Part shown: positions 54,499 through 63,652 of the stretch, piece after piece
How positions within the stretch are numbered: the first letter of the stretch is position 1
How the letters are laid out: each line of letters begins with the position of its first letter
Assembly: GCA_012295275.1 (NCBI GenBank)
Contig: CM022668.1
Span: 16,085,891-16,149,890, forward strand
From: Chrysomallon squamiferum
Taxonomy: Eukaryota > Mollusca > Gastropoda > Neomphalida > Peltospiridae
Direction: 5' to 3'
Length of the DNA stretch: 64,000 nucleotides
The notes under the pieces: model-generated
What the model saw: the letters and a program-made list of their open reading frames with translations, nothing else
Database searches by the model: none
Told to the model about the DNA's origin: nothing
Position numbers and translations under genes: made by a program

Positions 54499-56713
54499 AT
54501 GATTACGTTATTTTGTGTATCAGTAATTATAGGACAGGCATTTATAAACGTTGCATTAGGTAAATCTGTCTGTTGCATACGTAATTTATAGACTGTTTAT
54601 GTATCTGATTTCAATATGAACTTTATTTCGATTTAACTTTACGATTGTGTGTTTTGTTTTAAATTCAGATGAATTTTAAATCAATAAAAATTAATAACAA
54701 TATGAGGGAACCATGTAGGGACTACGGAACTGCTATGGATTTATTATATTGCTGTCGAAATTGTTAATACTTTGAAATAATGATGCTGATATATTTTGTT
54801 TTAAAAATACTGTCAATAAGTGTTTGTTTACTCAATGTTTATTATATAATTTATTTATTTTAATTTTTGTTCGTTAAATGTGTCATTTAAGTTTTCAGTA
54901 TAAGATCTCATTTAATAAAGTTACGGAGTAAGAGGCTATGTGTAGCCAAATTTGATAATTTAATTGGTGGATGTCAGAATATTATTGCAGTAGAACAGTA
55001 TACAATTCAAGATCTTATAGTGTATCTAATTATATATCATGATTGATGACCCTAACAAGACAATAATAATAATAAAAAATAATAACAGTAAACTTTTTTT
55101 TAATAAAATGGGAGAGGCAACTTTATTAAGAATCCCATTGATACAGAAACCCCATTTTGCTGGCTATTTATATATTTTTTTTTCTTAAAGCTCATCTTTA
55201 TTTTAGTTTATATTTAGCTAATATTTAGCCATACCTAAAGTCATAAGCAGAATTAGTTTTTATGGGATAAATATCCTATTCTTCTATGCATTTAATTATT
55301 TTAATTTATAATCCATTTTTTAAATATTCTACATGTGAGTTTAATTAGAGGAAAAGCCTGAGACACTGGATCAATAACAGAATAGTTAACTATTTCCCAT
55401 TCCACCTACTATCCCTCATCTGTTTTATAAATGACTGCTGCACAAGTATTCCTGTCTGTGGGATGGTATTATAAAACACCACTTTCTGCTAGAATAGTTC
55501 CCTTCATGGTAGCAGAGGCTTTCCTCTTTCATTTACATCATCATTATAACCATAATTGTTTACAGACACCTAACAATTGTTAATAATAAAATATATTAAA
55601 CAACTATGTATTTATTCATAGACACCTAATCATTGTTAATAATAAAGTTCATTAAAGAGCTGTTTATATATTTCAGCTGACCTCAGCAGCAAGTTACACT
55701 ACTATGAGTTGATAAATCCTATCAACATTTACACTCGATCCAAGCGAAGTGTTGATGAAACCTCGGATACAGAGATTTTGACTAAAGAGTTTGTGTTTGC
55801 TGCATTTAACAGGCAAGTCATTTGTATGGTATATCTGTTAATGAACGTTTAAATTTCAGATATGCACAGACCCATGTATTATTTAAACTTAAATATAATA
55901 TCAGAGAAAAACATTGTTCAAAAGATTCATAAAATATATTAAAAAAAAACCTTTGTATATTTGTGTGTTTATGTGTATGCATGTTTATATATTTGTATAT
56001 ATGTTTGTATGTATGATTGTCTAAATGTGTGCATGTCTGTGTGTGTTTGTGTAAGTATGTATGTATGTATGTATGTATATTTTGTAATGTATATATGAAT
56101 GTATTTTATGTATGCATGTTTATTCTGTGTGTTAGAAATGTATACATACATCATAAAAGTGTAAACACACACACAAACACACACACACACACTTTTACTC
56201 CTTTATAAAAATATGTTGTTCAGATGTTTTTAAACTGCATTCTTTTTCCATTAACCTTCTTAATTAATTTATATTATATACTGTTTAGACTGTTTCTTTG
56301 AGCAATGAATTTAAAATTGACTGATGTTTGTTTTATTTTTTCAGAACTTTTGTTTGTCACATGCGTACAAGAACTGAAATCTTCGCTCCTGGTTTTAATA
56401 TAACAGTTATAGAAAAAAATGGACAATCAACCATAGCTCATCTCCAAGAGGGAAATTTTTATTCTGGAAAAGTGGATGGTAAATAATACAGCTAATATAT
56501 GCTATAAAAAAAGAAATATATATATATATATATAAAAATAAAATGGCAGAAACAACAATAACAATAATAATAATAATGATAATAGGAAGAATGTTTTGTT
56601 TTCATGATTTACTGTTTTGTTTTGTTTTTGAATTTTTTTAAAAACATTTATTTACTTACTTGCTCTGTTTATTTATTTATTTATTGTTATTTTTATTATT
56701 ATTATTGCTATTA

Positions 56714-56769
<56 letters not shown>

Positions 56770-56926
56770 GCTATTGCTATTATTATTATTATTATTATTA
56801 TTAATATTATGATTATGATTATTGTTATTATTATTGTTATATTAGTATTATTTATATTATTATTGTTATATTATATTATTTATATTATTATTATTGCTAT
56901 TATTATTATTATTATTATTGTTATTA

Positions 56927-56988
<62 letters not shown>

Positions 56989-59900
56989 GTTATTATTATT
57001 ATTATTATTATTATTAATTAGCTCTGTGGTGTGTTACTGTTTCCTCTAGGTGAGGCTGTTTCTGAAATACATGGATATTTTGAAAATAATGTGTTCACTG
57101 GGACAGTATCAGTTGCAAGTGAAATGTTTGTTATTGAGGTAAGTTTATTTTATTTAAATCAGATTGAAAATGAAATAACGAAAGTGTTTCATGAATATTT
57201 CTTAGAGGCATGTCAATTATTTCTCACAAATTCATACTTCATATTGTATAGAATTATGTATTCATGTCTTAAGCATGCAGTATATATGAATAAACAATTA
57301 CCCTCAGACACTCAGACACATACTTCAAAGAACTGTGTCTAATGAACTGTAAGTCAAACATTCTGAAATAAAAGGTTTATTCTAGTCATAACATATGGCA
57401 TTTTATGATCAAATGTTAATTTTAAATATTTAAATATTATTTAAAGCCAGCTTGGCGACATTTTACAAAAGAGGAGCTCAGGGAACTGCCTGACGGAAAC
57501 ATGATTGTATACAGGGGAAGTGACATGAAAATCACATTCGACAAAAAACAGGGTCCAGAAAGGTATTTTACAGTTTAAATGCAAATTTATTTTTAATTTC
57601 CTTTTAAGAGACTTAAAAATATCACCTAGAAACGTTTTTGCATATTTCTGAGTGACTCTTTTGTTAGTTACTGGCAGTTATTCTTTGCTAATAATAAAGT
57701 GTGAACAAGCTGTATAAATACATTTTGTAAAAAATTTCAGCCAAAATTTACTAATGATAAAGTATGCAAGTGAAATTTAATAATATAAATATATATATTC
57801 ACAGAAATAAATCAATAATGTGAAGTTTGATTTTATTATTTAAAACATTTTCAATAGATAATGTGTTGTTTTAATGTTCCAGTGTAGTATGTTTACATTT
57901 ATGGTATTTTTGTGTTTATAAACCTCTCACTTTCTCTTTCTCTCACTCACTGAAACGTGCACACATCCTCATATCTAGATATATTACCCCAAAACCAGTT
58001 AAAAGCAGTTTGTTTTGAATAGAACCATTGTTTACAGAATAAATACAAGTATACATTAACTACAGAAATGTATGATAAACACACAATTTTTTTGTTTCAG
58101 AGCGACATTTTGCGGAGATCATGAAGGCCACAAAGTTGAAACTGACCAGAAAAAATCTTATCTTCTCAGTCACCATGGTAGCAGTTGTTTTAGTTTCACT
58201 GAAAAATTAGGATCATTTAATATCTGAAGTTTTGTTTCATTTTGAAATTTACAAGGGTTATTTAACCACAATGATGGATTCAAGCTAGGCTTAGAAAAAT
58301 AAGCCAAAGTGACATTTTGTGATGTTGAAACGAGACTGTGAGACATTTCCAACATCATGATAAATCTTTACTAACAATAAAGTATGAAAGAGAAATTGTA
58401 ATTCTGTTTTTGTAAATCAGTAGTGTTACAAAATGTCATCTCAGGTATATTTTGTGTATTTCTAAGTAATATTTTAATTAACACTAAACTTTGTTCATTT
58501 TAAAGTAAAGCTGAATAAGATTTATGCTGCTGGTTTTTTCTTAAAGCTTGATGTTATTTTGTTTACAGTATAGGTAAAAGAGGGAGAAAAACAATTTACC
58601 AAAAGATACAGATTCTTGAGTCACAAAAAACTACATCTTCTGAAAAAAAAAAATAATAATAATACAAACTGGTATAAAAAATGACTTGATAATCATATTT
58701 AGCTAATTTGTATTGCCAACAAAGTTTGACTTTATTATTTTCAAACACACTGCAACAAATCATACTTTATGTCATTTATTTAAATCCAGAAACCAATTTC
58801 ATCCTAAAAGATATTACCAATTAATAAATAATTCAGAACAAGCACAATTAAAATTAATGTTTGTTTGAATATTTTTAATTTTGGTTTTAAAATCAGGTTC
58901 ACGCCCAAAGAGACAGACCCCAACAGGAAACACATGTCGACTGATTGTCGTAGCAGACTACAAGTTTTACGAACAGATGGGAAACAGCAATATCTACACA
59001 ACAGCATCATACATGGTGAGTTTTCTTTATTTTTAAAAAAGTATTATTCTTTTACTCAAAACTTTTATGAACTGTACAATAAAAATTGATACTAGTTAGG
59101 CTGGGATTCTGTTTACATGATTCCAGCATGATCCAAACCTTGCCAACAAAATTCAGGGTTTTCTTGGAGCCATTTTTTTTCCACCATTTTTGTTTCTTGT
59201 GTCATTTTTTGGTTTTCCATCCTACACCCTCATAGGGCAGAGCAGAGGTAGGAAGGTTCATTGAAAGAGCCAAGAGCCAGTTTTTTCTCTGTGTGTAATA
59301 TTTATACAAGGATGTTCAGCTATCTTGTAAATTATAATCAAATCTTTCGTTACTTATATTGTATTAAATTATTTAAAAACAAAAATATAATGATGACACC
59401 AAAATATAATAATATTATACAGCTAAGATATTATTATCTTAGCAGTTTTTTTTTTTTTTTTTTTTTACTGTTGTTAAATAGATTATCATTGTAAAATATA
59501 AGATGTTGTAAGAATTTATTTCTGTGAATTTTGCAGGCAGGAATAATTGAACGGGTTGATGCTATTTATAGAAGAACTGTGTGGAACTCAGCTGGACTTA
59601 CTGGATTGGGATTTCAGATCCAGCAAGTACGTACACTGACCTAGGGATGGATCTATGGTGGTAAAGGGATGGATTTAGGGTTTATAGTAAAGGGTGGATC
59701 TAGGAGTGATGGTAAAGATATGGATCTAGGGGTTGGAGTAAAGTGATTATGTCTTTATAAAAGATTTGGGTGGAATTCTGCTGGTCTCACTGATTTTGGA
59801 TTTCAGATTCAACATGTAAGTTGATTAATACAGGCTGTATCTTCAGCATTTAAGTAACGAAAAACAAGTTTTAAATTTCCGTATGTGTTTGATTTAAGAA

Positions 59901-61601
59901 ATAAAGATATATTCATATTTTTTATTGTCCAAAGTTCAGCACCTCACTGTGTTAAATTATCAAAATTCAGCATATTCAGAATGAAACACACAAACAAGAC
60001 TGCAGTATAAATCAAAAGGAAATTTAAAAAATGCACCCATTCTTTTTTTCCTTCTGCAGTAAGTTTGTACAAAGATAATGGTTTTTTTTCTTCTGTTTTA
60101 GATGATTATCAACAAATTTCCTACAGTACCAGCCGGCAGTTCTGTTCATTACAACATGCAGCGAACCACTGCCTGGACTCCATCAGCACTTCTTCAGGTC
60201 TGTCTGTCTGTCTGTCTGTCTGCAGAATATTTCAAACTAACTGAATGTAGTATATTTTAAATATTCTTGTACTGGTCTTACACTGTTGTAAAAGTAATAT
60301 TTAAGATAAATGTTGAAATGTCACTGAAACTGTTATCTGGGATTATATACAGGTTTTCATTGAAGAAATTTATTATTTATATTTTATATATTTATATATT
60401 TATATATTTATTTACTTATTTACTTGTTTATTTATTTATTTATTTACCTATTTACTTATTTACTTGTTTATTTTTTTTATTATATTCAGGCATTTAGCAA
60501 GGAGTCCTATTTCCAGTCATTCTGTCTGGCTCACTTGTTCACACATCAGTCATTCACAAACAACATTCTGGGACTGGCGTACATCGCATCCAAGAACCTC
60601 AATGCAGCAGGAGGAATCTGCTCACCAAGTTTGTACAAATAAAAATAATTCTTATAAAACAAAAACTAACTTACAGATATTGTTTTTGAATTAAAATAGC
60701 ATTCCGTTATTTAAAAAAAAAAAAAAAAAAAATTAATTTATATAAACAAATTTTAAAATTTATATGTGGTATGAGATCCATAGAATAATTTATTATTATT
60801 AAAGTATTTGCAACATCACCTCAAGAAGAAATTTAAAGAAAAATTAATTTATAAAAAAAAATTAAAACTTTATATGTGGTATATGATCTATAGAATATTT
60901 ATTATTATTAAAGTATTTGCAACATCACCTCATGATTCTTTCAGTAAGAAATTTAAAGAAAATATGTCTTTGTATATCTGTCAGACCCATTGCTAGCCTT
61001 AAAATCTAAAAATAAACAATACATTATTATATTACACACTATGAACAGTAACTATGACGTTACCTGTTTAAAACACATTATTATGTAATAACAAAAACAA
61101 ATTTAACTGTTATTTATATACTTATAAAATATTTCTTACTTTACAGAAAATTTAAGAAAGTGTAGCAATCTTATATAAATTTTTTTACTGTACTGGAAAT
61201 TTAACAAACTGTTGTATTCTGCAGATTCAAATACAGGCTGGAGCAGTTCAATGAATTACGCTGGAGAAACAGTTTTAACTCAACAAGCTGACTTAGTCAC
61301 TGCTCACGGTTAGTCTCATTTCATTGGTTGATTAATTTGTTATTATTAAAGTAATAGTTTGTATTTGATTGTAGAATAATTAATTGAGAGTTATAAAATA
61401 TGATTTTAAAAATAAATTTATTGAACAAGCTCTTTTGTGGACTGAATATACCTCATTAGAAACATGTTAGAAATTGATTTAATAACTGATGAAATATTTG
61501 AAGTACCTATAATTCTTTGTTTGAATGAGATCAAAGATTTCTATTTCTCAGCCAGTTTGTTGTGTTGTTATGTTGGTTTGATTAAATGTAAATTGAAACA
61601 T

Positions 61602-61645
<44 letters not shown>

Positions 61646-63652
61646 CATTTGGACTGAACTGCAGAACTGGGTAAGCAAAATAACTTTTTTTAAATGCAAA
61701 TAGGCTTAATTAATGTTTATGTTGTTTGTATCAGTTATCTTAGTATGTCACTGAATGTGTATTTATATTTATATTTGTATTTTCAGGTGTGTATTTTGTT
61801 TTGATTTTTTTCTTAATATATTTAAAAAATTAATTTAAAAAATAGAAACTAGACGAAATGTTTGGTTTCTAAATCTATGACACACTTTTGACAGTAAACA
61901 TTGTGGAATGACTCAGATAGCAATTTTATTTTAATTTTTTTAAAATATATTTTCTGTTTTTAAATAATAAGTGTTAAATCAGACTTTTTGTGTTTTGCAG
62001 GACACAACTGGGGTAGTGAGCATGACCCCGCCTCAGGAGAGTGTGCCCCAGGCTCGATTGTGGGGAAAGGAAAATATCTGATGTATTCCTACTCTGTCAG
62101 TGGCTACGACTCAAATAATGACGTAAATATCTTTGTAAACTCAGTCAGTAGACTCAAATAATGACGTAAATATCTTTGTAAACTCAGTCAGTAGACTCGA
62201 ATAATGACGTAAATATCTTTGTAAACTCAGTCAGTAGACTCAAATAATGACGTAAATATCTTTATAAACTCAGTCAGTAGACTCAAATAATGATGTAAAT
62301 ATCTTTATAAACTGTCAGTGGCTATGACTCAAATAATGACATAAATATCTTTGTAAACTCAGTCAGTAGACTCAAATAATGACGTAAATATCTTTGTAAA
62401 CTCAGTCAGTAGACTCAAATAATGATGTAAATATCTTTGTAAACTGTCAGTGGCTATGACTCAAATAATGACGTAAATACCTTCGTAAACTCTGTTCGGA
62501 CCCATTTGTTTAAATTTAAACACATGTGGAGTATCATGTTATTTATGGTGTTTTAATTGTATGAATATTTTGGATTTAAGAATTGGAAGGTATAACTTAA
62601 GAATGGTATTTAGGTCTAAATTCAAAATCCCTCATATATGAATGTACACTGATGTTAGTTTTATATATTATTTTTGATAATTTGTGCACGAAAGTAAAAT
62701 TTGTTTTCTCTAAACCATCAAAAATGTGTTAATGTTCATTCACATAAGAATATGTTTAAGCTACATATATATATATATATATATGTTCATACATACACAA
62801 ACACACACACACATGAACATATATTCATTTATACATACATGTTGTTTATACAGATTAAAATTTTATAGTTTGATAGTTTAAAAAGAAATGTCCATTAATT
62901 GTTATTTTCCTTGTTTTTTTCAGAAATTCAGTTCTTGCAGCAAATTCCTGATCAATGAGGTTTTACAGAGCAAAGGTTTACAAGGATGTTTCAAAGGTTT
63001 GTTAATCATTAATTTTACAAACACTGTCTATTTGTCAGTTTAAATGATGCATTAATTTTGTGTTCTGTCATTGATATTATTAATTAGTTTAATGAATGCA
63101 CAGTGTTATAAGTAATAAATATTGAGTCATAAATGAGATTAACTAATTTTATTTTAACTTTGCTGATAAACATAACCTTTGATATATTAGTGATGTCAGA
63201 AAGAATTCCTTTTAACATGCAGTTGAATTATCTATGTACTTTTTTAATAAACACATGAACAAATAAATAATTTAATACATAAAACAAACAAACAAAAAAT
63301 CAAACAAACAAACACACAAATAAAAAACAAAGAAATAAAAACATAAATAAATTTTATTCAAAATCTCAGCTTTTCCTGAATGTTCTACTGATGTGGCTAA
63401 GAAGAAGAAAAAAAAAAACACAAAAAAACATATTAAAAAACATAAAAAATGTATTTCTAAATATGTTTAATATAAATTTAATATAAATTTAAATTAAAAT
63501 GTTTATTTTTGTACAGAGAGAGTGACAAGCAGTCTGTGTGGTAATGCAGTGATTGATAGCAATGAACAGTGTGACGCTGGTTATCTCGGGAAATTTGGTC
63601 TTGATCCATGTTGCAGTTCTACCTGTCAGCTGATTGGAAGTGCTGAATGCAG
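54499..63652 (+). CDS. ADAM17: ADAM17/TACE metalloprotease, 5' part
   Basis: Coding exons: 54499-54559, 55677-55812, 56345-56478, 57050-57138, 57447-57562, 58101-58177, 58897-59015, 59537-59626, 60102-60197, 60490-60628, 61225-61308, 61665-61670, 62001-62122, 62924-62996, 63517-63652 (1478 nt; the gene continues beyond 64000). All phases agree. Residues 1-21 are a signal peptide (MITLFCVSVIIGQAFINVALA). The prodomain has FCGDH as cysteine-switch candidate and ends at furin site RPKR (207-210; human 211-214). The catalytic domain starts NTCRLIVVADYKFY. The zinc motif HELGHNWGSEHD spans 380-391 only if the 6-nt exon is included. The Met-turn region reads GKYLMYSYSVSG. The disintegrin part (LCGNAVIDSNEQCDAG) is typical of ADAM17 rather than ADAM10. 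Intron 2 is GC-AG. ADAM17 sheds membrane proteins such as TNF and EGFR ligands in vertebrates. Confidence 0.93.
56689..57017. repeat. (ATT)n tract in ADAM17 intron 3
   Basis: About 330 bp of ATT units with GTT and GCT interruptions, ending 32 bases before the exon 4 acceptor. Confidence 0.95.
59642..59746. repeat. 26-bp tandem repeat in ADAM17 intron 8
   Basis: Four imperfect units of GGATGGATCTAGG followed by GTGATGGTAAAG-type sequence, starting 16 bases after the exon 8 donor. Confidence 0.85.
59764..59816 (+). pseudogene. ADAM17: Relic duplicate of the 3' half of ADAM17 exon 8
   Basis: Translates as GWNSAGLTDFGFQIQH and ends at a GTAAG donor, against VWNSAGLTGLGFQIQQ|GTACG in the real exon 8, 190 bp upstream. 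The donor is in the same phase. There is no acceptor that would enter in frame, so it looks like a non-functional partial duplicate. Confidence 0.8.
60733..60965. repeat. 109-bp direct duplication in ADAM17 intron 10
   Basis: Two copies share ATATGTGGTATGAGATCCAT-like sequence and GTATTTGCAACATCACCTCA, spaced about 109 bp. Confidence 0.85.
61604..61640. repeat. T37 run upstream of the ADAM17 microexon
   Basis: 37 T in a row, ending 24 bases before the microexon. It supplies an extreme pyrimidine tract. Such runs vary in length and are error-prone to sequence. Confidence 0.95.
61665..61670 (+). CDS. ADAM17: 6-nt ADAM17 microexon encoding the catalytic Glu
   Basis: The sequence is CTGCAG|AACTGG|GTAAGC, with a full acceptor and a strong donor around six bases. 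The exon before ends ...GCT CAC G (61308) and the exon after starts GA CAC AAC TGG (62001). Inserting AACTGG gives CAC GAA CTG GGA CAC AAC TGG = HELGHNW, exactly the zinc-binding motif. Direct joining gives HGHNW, lacking the catalytic Glu and the Leu. Phase 1 in and out. The exact fit of sequence, phase and splice signals makes chance unlikely. Confidence 0.9.
62109..62490 (+). repeat. ADAM17: Ninefold tandem copy of the ADAM17 exon 13 donor
   Basis: ACTCAAATAATGAC|GTAAAT, the end of exon 13 and its 5' splice site, recurs with GT at 62123, 62166, 62209, 62252, 62295, 62384, 62427 and 62473. A ninth copy at 62341 has AT in place of GT. Spacing is 43 or 46 bp. The 46-bp units also carry GTCAGTGGCTATGACTC, copied from the coding part. 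Reading past the first donor hits TAA in frame after 13 codons. Confidence 0.92.

What the first reader, a model, noticed from the sequence alone, without database searches (positions are those of the whole stretch)
61308..62003. Six-nucleotide microexon supplies the catalytic glutamate of ADAM17
Seen: exon 11 ends CAC G and exon 13 starts GA CAC AAC TGG. Between them, 24 bases after a T37 run, sits CTGCAG|AACTGG|GTAAGC. Including AACTGG restores HELGHNWGSEHD exactly. Skipping it keeps the frame but deletes Glu-Leu and should leave a protein that folds through the prodomain and disintegrin parts yet cannot hydrolyse peptide bonds. Known: the Glu of HExxH is the general base in metzincins, and inactive ADAMs lack it. 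Inference: inclusion or skipping of six bases could switch a sheddase between active and dominant-negative or pseudo-protease forms. Gene predictors will almost certainly miss this exon and report a dead enzyme.
Basis: partly seen in the sequence, partly recalled or inferred. Interest (0 to 1): 0.92.

Follow-up and report, generated by a model that had tools for sequence, protein, structure and literature searches.

The report
Six-base exon carries ADAM17 active site
In this snail gene the glutamate that lets the protease ADAM17 cut proteins sits on an exon only six bases long, and public gene models of many molluscs lack exactly the matching two residues, apparently because annotation misses the same tiny exon.

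Summary
In an intact 23-exon ADAM17 gene (15 exons in the window, 8 beyond it), AACTGG at 61665-61670 lies between AG and GT, and only its inclusion gives HELGHNWGSEHD. Skipping keeps the frame but gives HGHNWGSEHD, losing the general base and the HxxxH zinc spacing.

Homologues point to an old, normally included microexon. Of 191 fetched relatives, 25 lack exactly the Glu-plus-one pair: 23 molluscs, one annelid, one tick. None of the 46 short-contig, transcript-like records is among them; all 46 carry HE. The 25 are scattered over a 98-row tree (20 changes) and all keep GHxxGxxHD and the Met-turn. Two Pomacea records agree through the catalytic domain except that one lacks EL.

The proposed on/off switch has no support here, but 90% clustering of the database could hide minor skipped isoforms. 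No RNA from this animal and no relative's genomic DNA could be read; the second ADAM17 gene of this genome stayed unexamined.

The parts
61665..61670 (+). 6-nt microexon (exon 12) AACTGG; completes Glu (G|AA), gives Leu (CTG), starts Gly (G|GA) of HELGH; phase 1 on both sides
   Evidence: Direct sequence; restores HELGHNWGSEHD when spliced in; Gigantopelta ADAM17 residues 386-387 (EF) have no partner in the flanking exons 11 and 13
61225..61308 (+). exon 11, ends ...LVTAH + G
   Evidence: tblastn with Gigantopelta P0001, HSP 82% identity, matching up to TAH; donor GTTAGT
62001..62122 (+). exon 13, starts (G)GHNWGSEHD, carries 2nd and 3rd zinc His and the Met-turn
   Evidence: tblastn with P0001, 90% identity; acceptor TTTTGCAG
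61309..61664 (+). intron 11, 356 nt, GT-AG
61671..62000 (+). intron 12, 330 nt, GTAAGC...GCAG
61604..61640 (+). T37 run, 24 nt upstream of the microexon; a possible extended polypyrimidine tract (inferred role)
54499..63652 (+). ADAM17 gene in window: exons 54499-54559, 55677-55812, 56345-56478, 57050-57138, 57447-57562, 58101-58177, 58897-59015, 59537-59626, 60102-60197, 60490-60628, 61225-61308, 61665-61670, 62001-62122, 62924-62996, 63517-63652; eight more exons in L006 give a 724-aa uninterrupted protein
   Evidence: Pfam propeptide, Reprolysin, Disintegrin, ADAM17_MPD

Best explanation
61665-61670 is a real coding microexon of an intact ADAM17 gene, flanked by two phase-1 introns, and is normally included in the mRNA, so that the enzyme carries HELGHNWGSEHD and is active. 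The arrangement (exon ending in the first zinc His plus G, 6-nt exon, exon starting (G)GHNWG) is shared by many protostome ADAM17 genes in both mollusc paralogue groups, and is therefore old. Public models that read HGHNWG are mostly annotation errors that miss it. Shown: the sequence anatomy, the frame, the integrity of the gene, the pattern of missing residues in homologues, and the absence of skip forms among 46 transcript-like homologues. Inferred: inclusion in this animal, the genomic arrangement in the other species, and the catalytic consequence.
For: Anatomy and frame; uninterrupted 724-aa gene with the ADAM17 domains; collinear tblastn with Gigantopelta P0001, whose residues 386-387 (EF) lack a partner in flanking exons 11 and 13. 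Of 191 homologues, 25 lack exactly E plus one residue between H and GHxWG; 0 of 46 short-contig rows do, against 25 of 145 others (Fisher p 0.0008); alone, whose query was complete, 14 of 89 against 0 of 31 (p 0.02). Skip rows are concentrated in molluscs (23 of 60 genome-record rows), with 0 of 72 for the genome-record rows outside molluscs, annelids, brachiopods, nemerteans and chelicerates. They need 20 changes on the tree and all 25 keep GHxxGxxHD and the Met-turn. Close pairs differ the same way: Nucella P0161 skip vs transcript-like P0131 (85%), Ostrea P0177 vs P0182 (85%), Ixodes P0145 vs P0151 (82%). By splice rules, a lost AR-NNN-G starts with AA/AG (not a GT/GC donor) and, for Phe, ends TG/CG (not an AG acceptor), so an alternative donor or acceptor cannot make this loss; for a Leu or Ile codon ending in A an alternative acceptor would be possible, but here the codon is CTG.
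Against: No RNA from this species was available, and no relative's genomic DNA could be read, so the shared 6-nt exon elsewhere is inferred from proteins. The microexon's splice sites are not strong. Two skip models are named as isoforms in RefSeq style (Ixodes P0145 isoform X4, Biomphalaria P0098 isoform X2) and could reflect real transcripts. The homologue sample is capped and biased: searches listed 120 of 283 and 120 of 420 hits; one search used an EL-less query and a skip-type protein as query; 4 of the 25 skip rows first appeared and 7. 'Transcript-like' is judged from source label and short contig length only; at least three probable transcriptome records (P0117, P0138, P0148; origin recalled) sit in the 145. 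The in-genome paralogue could not be checked.
Confidence: 0.9

Rival explanations
1. Regulated cassette microexon: inclusion or skipping switches ADAM17 between an active sheddase and a catalytically dead form.
For: 6 nt keeps the frame; middling to weak splice sites; models named isoform X4 of Ixodes (P0145) and isoform X2 of Biomphalaria (P0098) are skip-type; 68.9% of 411 Drosophila microexons with exons on both sides were alternatively spliced in one survey (PMC8042270, passages read).
Against: 0 of 46 transcript-like homologues are skipped; skip models behave like annotation error (scattered on the tree). The skip product loses HxxxH geometry (inference). Caveat: 90% clustering would fold a minor skip isoform into the cluster of its inclusive form.
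Confidence: 0.06
2. The gene really lacks the catalytic Glu (pseudo-protease) and AACTGG is a chance match in the intron.
For: Generic AG-N6-GT units are common here (3 found, shuffle mean 1.8) and 77 of 5000 shuffles carry some unit that would restore Glu plus Leu, Phe, Ile or Met.
Against: The other zinc ligands and Met-turn are intact; the nearest relatives have HEFGHNW or HELGHNW; the same missing pair recurs in 25 models of widely separated species.
Confidence: 0.02
3. The skip-type relatives are real independent deletions or real pseudo-proteases, so the microexon is peculiar to this snail or to its near kin.
For: Genomic DNA of those species was not read here.
Against: Same gene with and without EL in Pomacea; 20 changes needed; all 25 keep the other zinc ligands and the Met-turn; in three cases a transcript-like relative 82-85% identical has HE.
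Confidence: 0.05

Closest known systems
ADAM17/TACE (metzincin M12B sheddase)
   Same: Propeptide, reprolysin, disintegrin and ADAM17_MPD domains, HELGHNWGSEHD; best PDB hits are ADAM17; one transmembrane stretch, judged by eye
   Different: The catalytic Glu is encoded by a separate 6-nt exon; I know of no such report for ADAM17 and found none
Very small animal exons: 6-bp exon of Drosophila invected, 6-bp exon of chicken cardiac troponin T, 3-bp exon of homothorax (6 bp in pea aphid)
   Same: In-frame exon of 3-6 nt between normal exons; the small homothorax exon is described as ancient and constitutive (PMC7392893, passages read)
   Different: Here the exon carries the general base of an enzyme active site, so its loss should abolish activity rather than tune it (inference)
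Conserved, pervasively misannotated microexons of plants
   Same: Tiny conserved coding exons missed by annotation, giving wrong protein models (PMC8831610, start of abstract and passages read)
   Different: An animal case, seen through protein models of molluscs, an annelid and a tick
Neuronal regulated microexon programme (e.g. the 6-nt exon of the adapter named Abpp1 in PMC8831610, passage)
   Same: Length and frame preservation
   Different: No evidence of regulated inclusion here; inclusion looks constitutive

Membership tests
ADAM17 | Propeptide + reprolysin + disintegrin + ADAM17-specific membrane-proximal domain | tested here: met
   PF01562, PF13688, PF13574, PF00200 (35.7 bits against a cut-off of 35.1) and PF16698 reach their cut-offs in the 724-aa protein
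ADAM17 | Closest relatives by sequence are ADAM17, not ADAM10 | tested here: met
   PDB: best ADAM17 chain 285 bits against best ADAM10 chain 115 bits; tree places it as sister to the Gigantopelta ADAM 17-like protease
ADAM17 | HExxHxxGxxH zinc motif | tested here: met
   HELGHNWGSEH only with the 6-nt exon; motif as stated in PMC7916773 (passage)
Coding microexon | Exon of 30 nt or less with canonical AG acceptor and GT donor, in frame | tested here: met
   6 nt, CTGCAG|AACTGG|GTAAGC, phase 1/phase 1
Coding microexon | Present in spliced mRNA | not testable with these tools
   No reads of this species; indirect support from 46 of 46 transcript-like homologues with HE
Regulated (alternatively spliced) microexon | Both inclusion and skipping isoforms in mRNA | tested here: inconclusive
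   0 of 46 transcript-like representatives skipped; clustering at 90% could hide minor isoforms
Catalytically inactive ADAM | No catalytic Glu in the encoded protein | tested here: not met
   Glu is encoded once the microexon is read; the other zinc ligands and Met-turn are intact

The most novel reading that the evidence does not exclude
The 6-nt exon is an ancient, conserved cassette in protostome ADAM17 genes whose regulated skipping, in some tissue or stage, produces a membrane-anchored catalytically dead ADAM17 that competes for partners or substrates; skip-type isoform models such as that of Ixodes would then be real.
Probability: 0.06. Interest if true: 0.88.

Novelty: new member of a known kind. 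Interest (0 to 1): 0.58.

Why it matters
It would be a clear animal case in which two residues indispensable to an enzyme are carried by a near-minimal exon kept over a very long time, which raises the question of how the spliceosome includes it reliably. Practically, a comparative study that takes public mollusc proteomes at face value would count many ADAM17 genes as dead proteases (23 of 60 genome-record models here, a capped sample biased towards skip-type); re-annotation should restore two residues in each. It also gives an exact, cheap test (one RT-PCR amplicon) of whether sheddase activity is set by splicing.

Tried and rejected
Rejected: alternative donor or acceptor instead of a microexon in this gene (the six bases neither begin with GT/GC nor end with AG). 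Rejected: read-through of the microexon into the following intron; the frame meets a stop six codons after the Gly. Rejected: a general split of HExxH in ADAM genes of this genome; the exons in L003 and L005 and the intronless L001 and L002 carry HExxH whole. Those are matches of one family search, not every ADAM gene.

Led nowhere: the second ADAM17 paralogue in the same genome (query P0034) could not be searched; 20 identical requests were answered 'busy'. Paper searches found no ADAM17 microexon: ADAM17+microexon gave 2 papers, both read by passages and unrelated; microexon+mollusc 15 papers, listing only, one read by passage; microexon+metalloprotease+catalytic+zinc-binding 0; spelling variants 1,294 papers, ten listed, none of the ten holding 'micro-exon' or 'mini-exon'. 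Other searches were seen as listings; from 16 and 39 some papers were then read by passages, and from 27 two. The search for the animal's genome paper was not followed up.

Full report
What is there. The window lies in a 404.6-Mb, 22-contig animal genome. The gene on the + strand from 54499 encodes ADAM17; its best protein match is the ADAM 17-like protease of the snail Gigantopelta aegis, 76% identical over the whole 492-residue query. The animal is therefore most likely a gastropod close to Gigantopelta; that it may be the scaly-foot snail is recalled from genome size and kinship and was not tested. Fifteen exons lie in the window and eight more in the following contig stretch L006. Joined, they give an uninterrupted 724-residue protein with propeptide, reprolysin, disintegrin and ADAM17 membrane-proximal domains. 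The gene shows no sign of decay.

The observation. The stated coordinates hold. Exon 11 ends CAC G at 61308; T37 is 61604-61640; 24 bases later AACTGG occupies 61665-61670 between CTGCAG and GTAAGC; exon 13 starts at 62001. The introns are 356 and 330 nt and both are phase 1. With the six bases the protein reads TAHELGHNWGSEHD, without them TAHGHNWGSEHD, in the same frame. Residues 386-387 (EF) of the Gigantopelta protein have no partner in the two flanking exons. A 6-nt unit that both fits AG...GT/GC and restores Glu plus a Leu, Phe, Ile or Met appears in 77 of 5000 shuffles of the stretch; the bare AG-N6-GT pattern is common (3 found, mean 1.8). The microexon's donor ranks 14th of 15 and its acceptor 9th of 14 by a leave-one-out score within the gene, so strength of splice sites is not an argument for it.

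Homologues. Three protein searches gave 191 different homologues: 120 listed of 283 hits, 6 new ones of 18 and 65 new ones among 120 listed of 420. By the final pattern 161 carry HE plus one residue before GH, 25 lack exactly these two residues, and 5 fall outside the pattern. Of these five, three (P0143, P0170, P0171) do carry HE when read; P0023 (Mytilus) reads AHGKLRHNWG and P0129 (Solemya) runs into what looks like intron just before GHNWG, both damaged models at the same spot. Short-contig records (sources lgn, ena, jgi or eukprot only; judged by label and contig length) number 46; none is skip-type and all carry HE. The other 145 rows hold all 25 skip cases (Fisher p 0.0008). By taxon, assigned by hand from the names, genome-record rows are skip-type in 14 of 32 gastropods, 8 of 25 bivalves, 1 of 2 cephalopods, 0 of 1 chiton, 1 of 2 annelids, 0 of 1 brachiopod, 0 of 3 nemerteans and 1 of 7 chelicerates, and in 0 of the remaining 72. 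My reading of the zero in the remaining 72 is that in insects and similar groups the site is not split, but genomic DNA was not seen.

Bias in that sample. One search used a query without the two residues and added six rows, four of them skip-type; one search used a skip-type protein as query and added 65 rows, seven of them skip-type. One search, with the complete query, listed 120, of which 14 are skip-type: 14 of 89 genome-record rows and 0 of 31 short-contig rows (Fisher p 0.02). The fractions are therefore not population estimates.

Why these look like annotation errors. Second, skip rows sit at tips, often beside inclusive rows: 20 changes of state on a quick 98-row tree of 97 homologues (all 25 skip rows among them) and the window protein; the damaged P0023 and P0129 were labelled inclusive there, and some skip rows do group together, such as the freshwater-snail paralogues P0097, P0098 and P0127. 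Third, all 25 keep GHxxGxxHD and the Met-turn, where released constraint would be expected after a real loss of catalysis (of the other 166, 164 and 163 match the two patterns). Fourth, the lost unit begins with AA or AG and, for Phe-coding relatives, ends in TG or CG, so it can be neither an alternative-donor nor an alternative-acceptor difference; a separate exon is the simple reading. Both mollusc ADAM17 groups, a cephalopod, an annelid and a tick show it, so the arrangement seems older than the mollusc-annelid-arthropod splits. That last step is inference from proteins, and for the annelid and the tick it rests on one model each.

Mechanism. Most likely the exon is constitutively included and the protein is an active sheddase. 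If skipped, HELGH becomes HGH: the general base is gone and the first zinc ligand is no longer four residues from the second (inference from the motif HEXXHXXGXXH, stated in PMC7916773, passage read). Mice that express ADAM17 without zinc-binding ability die around birth (PMC2958126, passage read), so frequent skipping would be costly if snails depend on the enzyme in a similar way. A tissue-specific low level of skipping is not excluded: the database is clustered at 90%, so skip isoforms of an inclusive protein would be hidden, and Ixodes P0145 (named isoform X4) and Biomphalaria P0098 (named isoform X2) are skip-type.

Comparison with known cases. Exons of 3-6 nt are known in animals: 6 bp in Drosophila invected, 6 bp in chicken cardiac troponin T, 3 bp in homothorax with 6 bp in the pea aphid (PMC7392893, passages). 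In Drosophila 31.1% of 411 microexons with exons on both sides were constitutive (PMC8042270, passages). Plants have many conserved small microexons that annotation gets wrong (PMC8831610, start of abstract and passages). The present case is a member of that kind, notable because the exon carries the catalytic residue and because its misannotation shows up across a phylum. I found no paper on an ADAM17 microexon (open-licence PubMed Central only).

Other ADAM genes here. The exons seen in L003 and L005 and the intronless genes in L001 and L002 carry HExxH uninterrupted, so the split is not general to the ADAM genes seen in this genome. The second ADAM17 gene could not be examined because the genome search was unanswered 20 times.

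Verdict. Observation confirmed; a real microexon at about 0.9 confidence; apparently ancient and often misannotated; the proposed activity switch is unproven and unlikely on present evidence.

Noticed in passing
L006:334-746 (between exons 16 and 17 of the same gene): An intron with the marks of a U12-type AT-AC intron: 5' ATATCCTT, TTTTCCTTAAC near the end, ending GTCAC; this junction gives SHCLGDG with the conserved Cys (SYCLGDG in Gigantopelta), while the GT-AG junction tried gave SHFTGDG. The U12 consensus is recalled.
   Followed up: partly
window 62108-62492: From the end of exon 13 into intron 13 run 8.8 tandem copies of a 43-base unit that repeats the exon/intron border GACTCAAATAATGAC|GTAAATAT, i.e. 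an array of duplicated 5' splice-site sequences.
   Followed up: no
window 59753-59818: A partial, apparently decayed duplicate of exon 8 (LYKRFGWNSAGLTDFGFQIQHV) in intron 8, running into GTAAGT.
   Followed up: no
window 55812-55818: Exon 2 ends at a GC donor (CAG|GCAAGT).
   Followed up: no
L001 (G000:C1 about 34.48 Mb), L002 (34.50 Mb), L004 (34.48 Mb): Two open single-exon ADAM genes of 821 and 828 aa with THELGHSFG and THEMGHSFG, and a broken third copy between them; ADAM10-like by recall of resemblance.
   Followed up: no
P0145 (Ixodes scapularis, isoform X4): The only arthropod skip-type model among those fetched; two other tick models and a transcript-like relative have HEFGH. The best lead for a real skipped isoform or for the microexon in chelicerates.
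   Followed up: no
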